In this document: piece after piece, positions 60,371 through 64,000 of the stretch
Position numbering within the stretch: position 1 is the stretch's first letter
Layout of the letters: each line of letters begins with the position of its first letter
Source of the DNA: Pseudoalteromonas distincta
GTDB taxonomy: Bacteria; Pseudomonadota; Gammaproteobacteria; Enterobacterales; Alteromonadaceae
Direction: 5' to 3'
DNA length: 64,000 bases
Assembly (NCBI RefSeq): GCF_000814675.1
Contig: NZ_JWIG01000015.1
Span: forward strand, 1-64,000
Translations under genes and position numbers: made by a program
Notes under the pieces: model-generated
Databases searched by the model: none
What the model was told of the DNA's origin: nothing
The model's input: the letters and a program-made list of their open reading frames with translations, nothing else

Positions 60371-61795
60371 ATGAGCAACGAATTAAAAACTCAAGTTGTT
60401 GTACTAGGCGGTGGTCCTGGTGGTTATTCTGCGGCTTTCCGTGCTGCTGACTTGGGCTTAGAAGTTACATTAGTAGAATCTCGCGAAACATTAGGTGGCG
60501 TATGTCTTAATGTTGGTTGTATTCCTTCTAAAGCACTTTTACACGTAGCTAAAGTGATTGATGACGCAGCAGAAATGTCATCTCACGGTGTTACTTTTGG
60601 CGCACCAAAAATCGATCTTGACCAAGTTCGTACTTGGAAAGATTCTGTAGTTGGCCAGTTAACTGGTGGACTAGAAGGTATGGCCAAAATGCGTAAAGTG
60701 AAAGTTGTATCTGGATACGGCAAATTCACTGGCAGCAATACTTTAGTAGTTGAAGGCGCAGACGGCGCTACAACTATCACGTTTGATAACGCGATTATTG
60801 CAGCAGGTTCTAAACCAGTTAACTTACCTTTCATCCCAGAAGATGACCGTGTAATTGATTCAACTGGTGCATTAGAACTTAAAGACGTACCAGAAAAACT
60901 ACTTGTATTGGGTGGTGGTATTATCGGTCTTGAAATGGGTACGGTTTACCGTGCGCTAGGTTCTGCAATTGATGTTGTAGAATTTGCTGATCAATTAGTA
61001 CCAGCCGCTGATAAAGACATTATCAAAATTTACCAAAAATACGTAAGCAAAAAATTCAACGTAATGCTTTCAACTAAAGTTGTTGGTGTTGAAGCTAAAG
61101 AAGACGGCTTATACGTAACGTTTGAAGGTAAAAACGCACCAGCAGAACCAGTACGTTACGACAAAGTACTTGTTGCAGTTGGCCGTACTCCAAACGGTAA
61201 CTTACTTGATGCTGAAAAAGCAGGCGTAAACGTTGATGAGCGTGGCTTTATTAATGTTGATAAGCAATTACGTACTAACGTAAGCCATATTTTTGCAATT
61301 GGTGACTTAGTTGGACAGCCTATGCTTGCGCATAAAGCGGTTCATGAAGGTCATGTTGCTGCAGAAGTTATTTCTGGTCAGAAGCATTTCTTCGACCCTA
61401 AATGTATTCCTTCAATTGCGTACACAGACCCAGAAATCGCTTGGGTAGGTGTTACTGAGAAAGAAGCAAAAGAGCAAGGCTTAAAAGTTGAAACTGCGGT
61501 ATTCCCGTGGGCAGCATCTGGTCGTGCAATTGCATCTGCTCGTACTGAAGGTTCTACTAAACTTATCTTTGATAAAGAAAGTGGCCGTATAATCGGTGGT
61601 GCTATGATCGGTATTAACGCGGGCGAAATGCTTGGCGAAATCGGTTTAGGTATTGAAATGGGTGCTGATGGTGAAGACTTAGCGCTTACAATTCATGCTC
61701 ACCCAACATTGAACGAATCAATCGGCCTTGCAGCTGAAATTTTTGAAGGTTCAATCACTGATTTACCAAACAAAAAAGCAGCTAAAAAGAAGTAA
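60371..61795 (+). CDS. lpd: Dihydrolipoamide dehydrogenase (E3)
   Basis: The 474-aa flavoprotein reoxidises dihydrolipoamide for the pyruvate, 2-oxoglutarate and glycine complexes. VVLGGGPGGYSAAFRAADLG (FAD), GGVCLNVGCIPSKALL (redox cysteines), LGGGIIGLEMGTV (NAD), AIGDLVGQPMLAHKA and HAHPTLNES (catalytic His-Glu) are all present. It has its own terminator; a terminator lies between aceF and lpd. Confidence 0.98.
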   Translation: MSNELKTQVVVLGGGPGGYSAAFRAADLGLEVTLVESRETLGGVCLNVGCIPSKALLHVAKVIDDAAEMSSHGVTFGAPKIDLDQVRTWKDSVVGQLTGGLEGMAKMRKVKVVSGYGKFTGSNTLVVEGADGATTITFDNAIIAAGSKPVNLPFIPEDDRVIDSTGALELKDVPEKLLVLGGGIIGLEMGTVYRALGSAIDVVEFADQLVPAADKDIIKIYQKYVSKKFNVMLSTKVVGVEAKEDGLYVTFEGKNAPAEPVRYDKVLVAVGRTPNGNLLDAEKAGVNVDERGFINVDKQLRTNVSHIFAIGDLVGQPMLAHKAVHEGHVAAEVISGQKHFFDPKCIPSIAYTDPEIAWVGVTEKEAKEQGLKVETAVFPWAASGRAIASARTEGSTKLIFDKESGRIIGGAMIGINAGEMLGEIGLGIEMGADGEDLALTIHAHPTLNESIGLAAEIFEGSITDLPNKKAAKKK

Positions 61796-61847: not shown

Positions 61848-61931
61848 TGTCTATTTTTAACTTAGATAAATATAAGATTAAATAACAAGAAGTCGTTACA
61901 ATGCGCGCTTAATTAATTGAAGGTAAATACA

Positions 61932-62612
61932 GTGAAAAACTCAGTTTTAGCATTACGCGCTCAACAAATAAGTGAATCTCGTCGAGAGTTTAATGCTCGA
62001 GGCGGTAAATTAGATCGCTGTGAACAATGCCTGATTGCTAAGCACTACTGTATTTGTAAAGGTGTTGAGCATGCAGATTGTAAGGCCGCTGTATGCTTAC
62101 TGATGTATCATAATGAAAGCTTTAAACCTTCTAATACAGGGCGTTTAATTGCTGAAATAGTGCCAGAAAACCACGCATTTAGATGGGATAGAACAGATCC
62201 TAACCCCGCTCTTTTAGCTTTAATAAATGATTCGCAGTATCAGCCTATGGTCGTCTTTCCCGCTGAAGATGTAGAAGAGGGCAGAGCCATTACAGAAGTG
62301 AGTATTGAATCAGGTAAAAAGCCGCTATTTATATTCTTAGATGGTACGTGGCGCGAAGCTAAGAAAATGATTCGCAAAAGCCCTTATTTAGATAACTTGC
62401 CTGTACTTTCTGTTACTGCTGATAAACTATCTGATTACCGATTACGTGTAGCCCCTCATGCACATCAACTAGGCACTGCTGAAGTGGCTATTATGGTATT
62501 AGCACTTGCGGGCGAAATGGATGCATCGACAAAATTAGAGCAGCATTTTATTAAGTTTCGTGATGCGTATTTATTGGGTAAGCGCAACAAGGGACGACCG
62601 CTAGAAGATTAA
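61932..62612 (+). CDS. DTW-domain protein (tRNA-uridine aminocarboxypropyltransferase type)
   Basis: The 226-aa protein has an N-terminal zinc-type cluster (RCEQCLIAKHYCICK, about residues 30-46) and the DTW motif as FLDGTWREAKKMIRKSPYL (about 137-155), then LGTAEVAIMVLAL. DTW proteins such as TapT and TSR3 transfer the aminocarboxypropyl group of SAM; TapT modifies tRNA U47. That specific substrate is inferred. GTG 61932 has AAGG 8 nt upstream; a TTG 15 bases earlier is less likely. It is convergent with the next gene, 10 bp apart. Confidence 0.82.
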   Translation: MKNSVLALRAQQISESRREFNARGGKLDRCEQCLIAKHYCICKGVEHADCKAAVCLLMYHNESFKPSNTGRLIAEIVPENHAFRWDRTDPNPALLALINDSQYQPMVVFPAEDVEEGRAITEVSIESGKKPLFIFLDGTWREAKKMIRKSPYLDNLPVLSVTADKLSDYRLRVAPHAHQLGTAEVAIMVLALAGEMDASTKLEQHFIKFRDAYLLGKRNKGRPLED

Positions 62613-62622
62613 TTTTACGAAG

Positions 62623-63138
62623 TTAAGCAAATGCTTGCTGATTTTTTAAGTGAGCAAGTGCTTTATTTTGAATAGCTCTGAAGCCTTCTTCAGATGTTAA
62701 TTGTAAAACAGTATTATACAATTGACTTATACTATTATGCACTTGAATAAACGAGATACAGTCTTCACCAATCATTTCTTTTGCTTCTTCAACTCGTTTC
62801 AAAAAGTAGCAGCTAATGTCTATTTTGCCATTAAATTGAGTCGTTGCAATTGCGTTTGCTATTCTATTAAGTTGATAGCTAAACTCATCAGGTCGAGCAC
62901 CTTCACCCCACTTGCTAATACGAATGTCGCGTTCTAACTGAATAATTTCGTTAAGTATATTTTTAAACTCACTCATTGGCATATTTAAAAAGTTATAACC
63001 TTTGGGGTTAAATAAAGCTTTATAGGGATTTTCGTCGGGGGTTTGGGCACTAAATACACCAATTGGTTTTGCTGTACTTGCGTCTGATACTTTACATAAA
63101 AAGGTATTACTTTGAGATGTTTTAAAATTCATATCCAT
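62623..63138 (-). CDS. Hypothetical protein next to the CsrB-type RNA
   Basis: I do not recognise this 171-aa soluble protein. The N-terminal half (MDMNFKTSQSNTFLCKVSDAS ... GYNFLNMP) appears globular, the rest helical with QLERDIRISKWGEGARPDEFSYQL and a C-terminal QNKALAHLKNQQAF. No signal peptide. Start: ATG 63138 or 63132, neither with a strong ribosome site. Lower G+C than its housekeeping neighbours. It lies between the DTW gene and the csrB-like locus, in the same direction as the RNA but beyond its terminator. Confidence 0.6.
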   Translation of the reverse strand: MDMNFKTSQSNTFLCKVSDASTAKPIGVFSAQTPDENPYKALFNPKGYNFLNMPMSEFKNILNEIIQLERDIRISKWGEGARPDEFSYQLNRIANAIATTQFNGKIDISCYFLKRVEEAKEMIGEDCISFIQVHNSISQLYNTVLQLTSEEGFRAIQNKALAHLKNQQAFA

Positions 63139-63313: not shown

Positions 63314-63346
63314 AAAGAAAAGCGCGCTCTATCTCTAGGCGCGCTT
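63314..63346 (-). terminator. Terminator of the CsrB-type RNA
   Basis: AAGCGCGC and GCGCGCTT form a perfect 8-bp GC-rich stem with an 11-nt loop; on the minus strand it is followed by TTCTTT. Confidence 0.85.
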
Positions 63347-63787
63347 GCGGAATCTTCTAATTTTCTGCATCCTGCAATTGAACTTAATCAACTCCAATTT
63401 TCACTAATCCATGTTTATTACTATATTACTTTTTAGTTCTATGTAATGTAGACCATCCGGGCCTGTATCCTTTAATTCCTAAACATCCTGTAGGGTAAAT
63501 ACTATTACCAAATCCTTAATTACACTTCCTAGTGTATCCTTGTTTTAACCAATCCCTTGTGTTGCCTTAAAGGCCTGTCCATTTATTCCTTCAACATCCT
63601 GTTGAACAACTTAGCCTTGTTGTTATCCTTTTCGCATCTTCCTGACGCTGTCCTTTTTACAACATTGCGTTGTGATACTCATCCTGAGCCTGTCCTAAAG
63701 TCCGTGTTGTCCTGATAACCTAATCATTGGTTGGTTGAGTAAGCAGTCCGTTTCCTTTTACTCAATAAGCGTCATTGCTTGGTTGAT
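63314..63787 (-). ncRNA. csrB: CsrB/RsmZ-type regulatory RNA (sponge for CsrA)
   Basis: On the minus strand this stretch holds about 23 GGA motifs in under 400 bases (about six expected by chance), 16 of them AGGA. Many sit in loops of small perfect hairpins: TGCA-GGA-TGCA (63366-63376), TTCAACA-GGA-TGTTGAA (63590-63606), CTCA-GGA-TGAG (63678-63688) and ACACT-AGGA-AGTGT (63522-63535). CAGGATG occurs repeatedly, the CsrB repeat. A TATAAT box and a terminator bracket it, and a GacA/UvrY box lies upstream. It would titrate the translational regulator CsrA. The 5' end (63787) is predicted from the -10 box; length about 474 nt. Confidence 0.9.
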
Positions 63788-63793
63788 GCGTAA

Positions 63794-63799
63794 ATTATA
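63794..63799 (-). promoter_or_regulatory. -10 box of the CsrB-type RNA
   Basis: A perfect TATAAT on the minus strand with no recognisable -35, as expected for an activator-dependent promoter. Transcription should begin near 63787. Confidence 0.65.
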
Positions 63800-63945: not shown

Positions 63946-63963
63946 CGTAAGACATCTCTTACA
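63946..63963. promoter_or_regulatory. GacA/UvrY (SirA) activator box upstream of csrB
   Basis: CGTAAG-ACATCT-CTTACA fits the TGTAAG-N6-CTTACA palindrome with one mismatch, about 160 bp upstream of the predicted start. This resembles the upstream activating sequence of rsmZ/csrB genes. Confidence 0.85.
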
Positions 63964-64000
63964 CCGTATTTCCTTTTTGGGCGTTATTTACATATTTACA

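What the first reader, a model, noticed from the sequence alone, without database searches (positions are those of the whole stretch)
63314..63787. A CsrB/RsmZ-type RNA gene hidden in an apparently empty region
Reading the minus strand of this gene-free stretch gives about 23 GGA motifs, 16 of them AGGA, with several in loops of small perfect hairpins, a GC-rich terminator and a TATAAT box. This is the architecture of CsrA-sequestering RNAs. Standard ORF or tRNA annotation would leave the region blank. At about 474 nt it would be longer than the 369-nt E. coli CsrB, and it lies beside an unrecognised gene.
Basis: partly seen in the sequence, partly recalled or inferred. Interest (0 to 1): 0.85.

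Follow-up and report, generated by a model that had tools for sequence, protein, structure and literature searches.

The report
CsrA-sponge small RNA of Pseudoalteromonas
The apparently empty stretch almost certainly makes a small RNA that soaks up the global regulator protein CsrA; it is real and conserved in its marine genus, but RNAs of this kind are already published for a relative, so it is a sound find rather than a new kind of thing.

Summary
In detail: the minus strand of 63314-63787 has 23 GGA, 16 of them AGGA; 12,706 same-length windows average 2.2 and the best elsewhere has 10. The reading as a CsrB/Rsm-type RNA is supported. GGA sites are kept in 39.5 of 45 orthologues on average, other triplets in 22.2; hairpin stems covary. 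A GGA-rich RNA of this type is seen in 103 of 107 congeneric genomes examined. CsrA and UvrY/GacA genes are present. Rfam CsrB gives only a sub-threshold hit (21.8 bits against 71). Csr RNAs Pf1-Pf3 of Pseudoalteromonas fuliginea, with CsrA-related tests, are in print; this is most likely the Pf2 orthologue (not provable here). Transcription and CsrA binding are not shown for this locus. Most open point: an invariant GCAGGA-AAGATTCCG element just before the terminator, perhaps a decay switch. Real, but a new member of a known kind.

The parts
63946..63963 (-). UvrY/GacA-type 18-bp box TGTAAGAGATGTCTTACG, centred about 167 bp before the inferred start
   Evidence: Exact pattern match; 15 of 18 identical to the E. 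coli csrB site; at most 1 mismatch in 45 of 45 aligned orthologues
63794..63799 (-). -10 box TATAAT
   Evidence: Read; conservation 0.94 in 45 orthologues; not listed by the promoter scan
63314..63787 (-). Inferred CsrB/Rsm-type sRNA gene, about 474 nt, 23 GGA
   Evidence: both ends inferred from -10 box and terminator, not mapped
63677..63689 (-). Hairpin GCUCAGGAUGAGU, GGA in loop
   Evidence: Helix 4, paired in 100% of cells; GGA kept in 45 of 45
63634..63648 (-). Hairpin GCGUCAGGAAGAUGC, GGA in loop
   Evidence: Helix 5, 3 of 5 pairs with changes on both sides; GGA kept in 34 of 45
63592..63604 (-). Hairpin CAACAGGAUGUUG, GGA in loop
   Evidence: Read from the sequence; GGA kept in 39 of 45
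63522..63535 (-). Hairpin ACACUAGGAAGUGU, GGA in loop; stem changes between lineages
   Evidence: Seen by eye; GGA kept in 41 of 45
63367..63375 (-). Last CsrA-type hairpin GCAGGAUGC
   Evidence: GGA kept in 45 of 45; GCAGGA and the following GC invariant in 32 diverse rows
63348..63358 (-). Conserved AGAAGAUUCCG element before the terminator, possible decay-control site
   Evidence: GATTCCG downstream of at least 8 GGA in 100 of 107 genomes; AAGATTCCG invariant in 32 of 32 rows, which were chosen by GATTCCG
63314..63346 (-). Intrinsic terminator hairpin and T-rich tail
   Evidence: Helix 14; stem covaries; not listed by the simple scan

Best explanation
This is the gene of a CsrB/Rsm-type small RNA of a Pseudoalteromonas species. 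Phosphorylated UvrY/GacA would bind the 18-bp box about 167 bp upstream and switch on transcription from the TATAAT promoter. The RNA of about 474 nt presents about 23 GGA sites, many in hairpin loops, binds many CsrA dimers and so releases CsrA-controlled mRNAs. Shown here: motif content, promoter-like and terminator sequences, conservation, covariation, presence of CsrA and UvrY/GacA genes. Inferred from known systems: transcription, UvrY binding, CsrA binding. It is probably the orthologue of P. fuliginea Pf2 (about 0.75), otherwise of Pf1.
For: GGA excess; GGA triplets kept far better than other triplets; covariation, 15 pairs with changes on both sides against 5.9 in shuffles; box at fixed distance in 45 of 45; box and AGGA clusters found by separate genome-wide searches coincide at two places; 14 of 15 loci fetched around exact boxes of the genus have 19-23 GGA per 300 nt starting 181-269 nt downstream, one has 9; CsrA and UvrY/GacA above NCBIfam cut-offs; published Csr RNAs Pf1-Pf3 in the same genus.
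Against: No Rfam match at the gathering score; the sub-threshold RF00018 search at E up to 10 also rings in 8 of 14 control genomes. No expression data. A looser box pattern matches exactly at C14:121915 with no GGA cluster. Three window GGA sites are poorly kept (14, 20 and 30 of 45). 'Further pair types' does not exceed shuffles (138 of 500). Simple promoter and terminator scans list nothing here.
Confidence: 0.95

Rival explanations
1. A chance or compositional GGA-rich run in a region that is not transcribed as an RNA gene.
For: Transcription is not shown; no Rfam hit at threshold.
Against: Far outside the background; GGA sites selectively kept, stems covary, box at fixed distance.
Confidence: 0.02
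2. A long 5' leader of the 171-aa gene (62623-63138), with CsrA control of that gene.
For: Same strand, the gene starts 176 nt downstream of the inferred RNA end.
Against: A terminator lies between them; in 30 of 38 genomes with the RNA near the DTW gene the gap is too short for the 171-aa gene; relatives with EMSA and glycogen data act as free sRNAs.
Confidence: 0.02
3. The upstream box mainly serves the divergent solute-binding-protein/ABC-transporter operon that begins just beyond the window, not the RNA.
For: The operon begins on the other strand about 110 bp from the box if its ATG is used (L003:4075); the box is nearly palindromic.
Against: Distance to the RNA start is fixed across 45 orthologues, and boxes at other loci also precede GGA-rich RNAs. 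Both roles could hold.
Confidence: 0.05

Closest known systems
Pf2 and Pf1 Csr sRNAs of Pseudoalteromonas fuliginea BSW20308 (PMC11882849, PMC9927453; abstracts, named sections and passages read)
   Same: Same genus; intergenic; many GGA (Pf2 21, Pf1 25), rho-independent terminator, upstream GacA-type box; the Pf1 box as printed differs from the + strand of this box at one position.
   Different: Here 23 GGA. The printed Pf1 box reads in sense in the other Csr RNA class (L136, L137), which is why Pf2 is preferred for this locus.
E. coli CsrB (RF00018)
   Same: GGA number (22 against 23), hairpin loops, UvrY box far upstream (-182 against about -167), terminator.
   Different: Little sequence similarity; 369 against about 474 nt; Rfam score far below the cut-off. 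The positional counterpart of csrB in this genome seems to be the other RNA, at C9.
Aln1a-c of Alteromonas macleodii Te101 (PMC5864184, passages read)
   Same: Csr-type sRNAs of another marine gammaproteobacterium with many A(N)GGA motifs in single-stranded regions.
   Different: Three RNAs from one 404-nt intergenic region; here one RNA of about 474 nt at another place.

Membership tests
CsrB/Rsm-type CsrA-sequestering sRNAs (functional family) | Many GGA sites, well above background | tested here: met
   23 in 474 nt against mean 2.18
CsrB/Rsm-type CsrA-sequestering sRNAs (functional family) | GGA in conserved hairpin loops | tested here: met
CsrB/Rsm-type CsrA-sequestering sRNAs (functional family) | UvrY/GacA box upstream | tested here: met
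   (sequence only; binding not tested)
CsrB/Rsm-type CsrA-sequestering sRNAs (functional family) | CsrA and UvrY/GacA genes in the genome | tested here: met
   CsrA 112 bits (cut-off 73), UvrY/SirA/GacA family 393.8 bits (cut-off 280)
CsrB/Rsm-type CsrA-sequestering sRNAs (functional family) | RNA is made and binds CsrA | not testable with these tools
   Needs RNA-seq or Northern and gel shift
Rfam CsrB RF00018 | Score at or above the gathering score of 71 bits | tested here: not met
   21.8 and 13.3 bits
Orthologue of P. fuliginea Pf2 | Sequence match and same neighbours D172_RS02370/02375 | not tested
   Pf2 sequence and the products of these genes were not available in what I could read
Orthologue of P. 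fuliginea Pf2 | 21 GGA motifs | tested here: inconclusive
   23 in the window, 22-27 in most aligned congeners
CsrD/RNase E-controlled turnover as in E. coli CsrB | Segment before the terminator flanked by a CsrA site | tested here: inconclusive
   A conserved element sits there; whether it is unstructured or cut is unknown
CsrD/RNase E-controlled turnover as in E. coli CsrB | CsrD orthologue in the genome | tested here: inconclusive
   Best candidate C32:11092-12345: CsrD model is its top NCBIfam family (217.4 bits) but far under the cut-off of 663; a second candidate fits other families better

The most novel reading that the evidence does not exclude
The invariant 3' element is a CsrA-sensitive decay switch. 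The last GGA either sits in a small hairpin loop and binds CsrA, or pairs with the UUCC of AAGAUUCCG, thereby exposing or hiding an RNase cleavage site just before the terminator: a genus-wide form of CsrB turnover control, not mentioned in the parts of the Pf1-Pf3 papers that I read, in a lineage where only a divergent CsrD candidate was found.
Probability: 0.15. Interest if true: 0.5.

Novelty: new member of a known kind. Interest (0 to 1): 0.33.

Why it matters
A hand reading of raw sequence found a global-regulator RNA that Rfam's CsrB model leaves below threshold. The published BLAST survey found Pf1, Pf2 and Pf3 matches in 37.5, 45.1 and 69.9% of 672 Pseudoalteromonas genomes and called them widespread, not ubiquitous (PMC11882849, section read). 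Using gene neighbourhood and the 3' element as well, an RNA of this type is found in 103 of 107 species genomes examined here. A covariance model of the 3' element separates the genus (six genomes not used to build it: 59.4-71.5 bits) from listed matches in other genera (29.7 bits or less), so annotation pipelines could call it.

Tried and rejected
Coding explanation: rejected, 9-15 stops in each minus-strand frame. Chance GGA run: rejected. Leader of the 171-aa gene: disfavoured by the terminator and by its lack of room in 30 of 38 related loci. Rfam at the gathering score: only a tRNA in the whole window. Reaching outside the genus with model R1: 187 of 295 genomes of the family gave E up to 0.01, but scores split: 16 congeners listed at 55.3-77.2 bits (10 of these 16 were in the model), other listed matches at 29.7 or less; the 14 non-genus loci fetched (L237-L250) have no GATTCCG and at most 11 GGA per 350 nt. 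I take the latter as ordinary terminators; the E-values of this briefly calibrated model are too generous. The AGGA-spacing control is uninformative, since the reversed pattern is the same pattern. A third Csr RNA (Pf3-like, 9 GGA) in this genome was not found, but the patterns used would miss a 9-GGA RNA. CsrD: inconclusive. Kulkarni 2006 (PMC1488887) is not held, so whether it predicted this locus is unknown. Literature searches on Pseudoalteromonas Csr RNAs; 'DTW domain' with 'Csr sRNA': 0 papers.

Searches were made after it, to verify gene names. Mended then: the AGGA-cluster statement (a third, simple-repeat cluster exists), the calls cited for the 103 of 107, and which model matches were in the model itself.

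Full report
What is there. On the minus strand, from 63787 to 63314, lies a 474-nt stretch with 23 GGA, 16 of them AGGA. A TATAAT box precedes it (63799-63794) and a GC-rich hairpin with a T-rich tail ends it (63346-63314; read). No minus-strand frame is open for more than 31 codons. In 12,706 windows of equal length on both strands of the 64 kb the mean is 2.18 GGA (sd 1.82) and the best outside this element is 10; 2,000 dinucleotide shuffles of the element itself reach at most 19. The simple promoter and terminator scans list nothing here, probably because they require a -35 hexamer and a loop of at most 8 nt.

An 18-bp inverted repeat TGTAAGAGATGTCTTACG lies at 63946-63963. It is identical at 15 of 18 positions to the repeat in front of E. 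coli csrB, which UvrY binds (PMC4682653, passages read). In E. coli it is centred at -182, here 167.5 bp before the inferred start. In the whole genome a box with the csrB-like core occurs with at most one mismatch at two places, here and at C9:62218-62235. A separate search for three AGGA close together gives 33 matches; more than one match in the same place occurs here (4), at C9:61673-61988 (7), and at C32:59862-59897 (3, a short AGGAATAT simple repeat). So the two box sites and the two non-repetitive AGGA clusters coincide. Against: a looser box pattern also matches exactly at C14:121915, where there is no GGA cluster.

Conservation. BLASTN with the RNA matches 71 of 108 genomes of the genus: 48 strongly (E 7.4e-58 or better) and 23 only weakly over short pieces near the 3' end. 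Of the 48, three were dropped before counting (L033 and L036 with a large deletion, L124 with an insertion) and 45, the window's own included, were aligned. GGA triplets of the window are kept in 39.5 of 45 on average (22 sites between 63380 and 63787; the 23rd, at 63372, in 45 of 45), other triplets in 22.2. The weakest sites are 63515 (14 of 45), 63589 (20) and 63479 (30). Mean column conservation is 0.79 in the RNA, 0.94 in the -10, 0.83 in the box, 0.58-0.62 around the box and 0.34 just after the terminator. Searched with a degenerate pattern (which I had drawn up from some of these boxes), the box is present in 45 of 45 with 0 (25) or 1 (20) mismatch, centred at -165 to -168 (one at -178); the reversed pattern does no better than 4-6 mismatches. 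Across the genus the same pattern occurs without mismatch in 51 of 108 genomes and its reversed control in none. Of 15 loci fetched around such boxes (L136-L140, L142-L151), 14 have 19-23 GGA per 300 nt starting 181-269 nt downstream, and one (L143) has 9.

Structure. On 25 of the 45 rows, chosen by me for diversity (A1), the consensus structure was reduced to 64 local pairs and counted: 98.7% of cells pair, against 28-37% with the 3' partners slid by 1-3 columns; 15 pairs have changes on both sides (shuffles 5.9; 0 of 500 as high). 'Further pair types' does not exceed shuffles (138 of 500 as high). The structure came from the same alignment, so the slid control flatters it; related rows can also inflate the shuffle control. 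The hairpin at 63535-63522 changes its stem between lineages while mostly keeping a GGA loop, as seen by eye.

How far it reaches. A DTW-domain gene (61917-62612; PF03942) is nearby. Comparing places by eye, in 38 of the 48 strong genomes the RNA lies on the same contig within 5 kb of this gene, and in 30 of these 38 the gap is under 230 nt; in the other 10 it lies elsewhere or on another contig. The strong 48 have 17-31 GGA in the RNA. For the 23 weak genomes a GGA-rich stretch lies at the match (21 with 16-25 GGA per 350 nt; L125 and L126 with 17 and 21 per 300 nt). Of the 37 no-match genomes, 36 have the DTW gene; beside it, in the expected orientation, 32 of 36 have 13-27 GGA per 350 nt, and L168, L174, L175 and L176 have 4-7. 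One genome, G010, was not examined. So an RNA of this type is seen in 48 + 23 + 32 = 103 of 107 genomes.

The 3' element. In 100 of the 107 loci GATTCCG follows at least 8 GGA within 350 nt. In 32 diverse rows, chosen by that key, the terminator stem changes with pairing mostly kept (both-side changes in 5 of its 7 pairs), while GCAGGA, the GC two bases later and AAGATTCCG do not change. In E. coli CsrB, RNase E cuts an unstructured segment just before the terminator, CsrA on two adjacent GGA sites protects it, and CsrD overcomes the protection (PMC5027483, passages read). The element here sits at the same place. RNAalifold pairs the last GGA with the UCC of AAGAUUCCG (25 of 25 rows, 32 of 32), which excludes the small hairpin that would present this GGA. 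As nothing varies there, the pairing is a hypothesis without covariation support. The best CsrD candidate (C32:11092-12345) has the CsrD model as its top family but at 217 bits against a cut-off of 663.

The system. One CsrA gene was found and a UvrY/SirA/GacA-family regulator above cut-off. The second GGA-rich RNA of this genome ('class B', C9, terminator end at 61481, minus) lies near genes for a DUF446 protein (YqcC type), a pseudouridine synthase, a flavodoxin, DUF3549 and DUF3301. E. coli csrB lies beside yqcC, annotated DUF446. Class B is thus the likely positional csrB, and the RNA of this finding a further Csr RNA near the DTW gene.

What is known. Wen et al. 2023 (PMC9927453: abstract, sections 5 and 12, passages) describe Pf1 of P. 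fuliginea as a CsrB-family RNA acting on CsrA and glycogen. Duan et al. 2025 (PMC11882849: abstract, sections 6, 7 and 19, passages) add Pf2 (21 GGA) and Pf3 (9 GGA), with promoter fusions, CsrA gel shifts and glycogen assays. The Pf1 box as printed reads in sense in class B of G001 and G016 (L136, L137), and L137 counts 25 GGA, the figure the 2025 paper gives for Pf1 (the start used in that count is a loose guess; L136 counts 29). So Pf1 is most likely class B and this locus most likely Pf2. Against: the EB27 orthologue of this locus (L005, L011) has the same 18-mer on the other strand, the 2023 paper gives 21 GGA for Pf1, and this locus has 23, not 21. Whether the window's own genome is in the paper's list was not checked, as supplements could not be read here.

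Verdict. A real CsrB-type sRNA gene, correctly read by the first stage, very probably orthologous to a published RNA of the same genus. Ordinary in kind, useful as annotation, with one open question in the invariant 3' element.

Noticed in passing
L127 (G000:C9:58000-66000); box C9:62218-62235, terminator end C9:61481, minus: A second GGA-rich Csr-type RNA of this genome, near DUF446, pseudouridine synthase and flavodoxin genes, like E. coli csrB beside yqcC; likely the positional csrB.
   Followed up: partly
L127:3601-3919 and L136:1632-1969: The second RNA contains an internal tandem repeat of about 109 bp (2.3-3.1 copies); none is reported in L137, so its GGA number seems to change by tandem duplication between species.
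   Followed up: partly
63348-63375: GCAGGA and AAGATTCCG before the terminator are invariant in 32 diverse rows while the terminator stem changes; the GGA can pair with the UCC.
   Followed up: partly
62623-63138: A 171-aa protein without Pfam match, found by a close-relatives scan in only three named Pseudoalteromonas contigs; probably a recent insertion between the RNA and the DTW gene.
   Followed up: no
L168, L174, L175, L176: Four congeneric genomes have no GGA-rich stretch beside the DTW gene; whether the RNA was lost or moved is not known.
   Followed up: no
63946-64000 and L003:4075-7760: The UvrY-type box also lies about 110 bp before a divergent solute-binding-protein/ABC-transporter operon; shared control is possible.
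   Followed up: no
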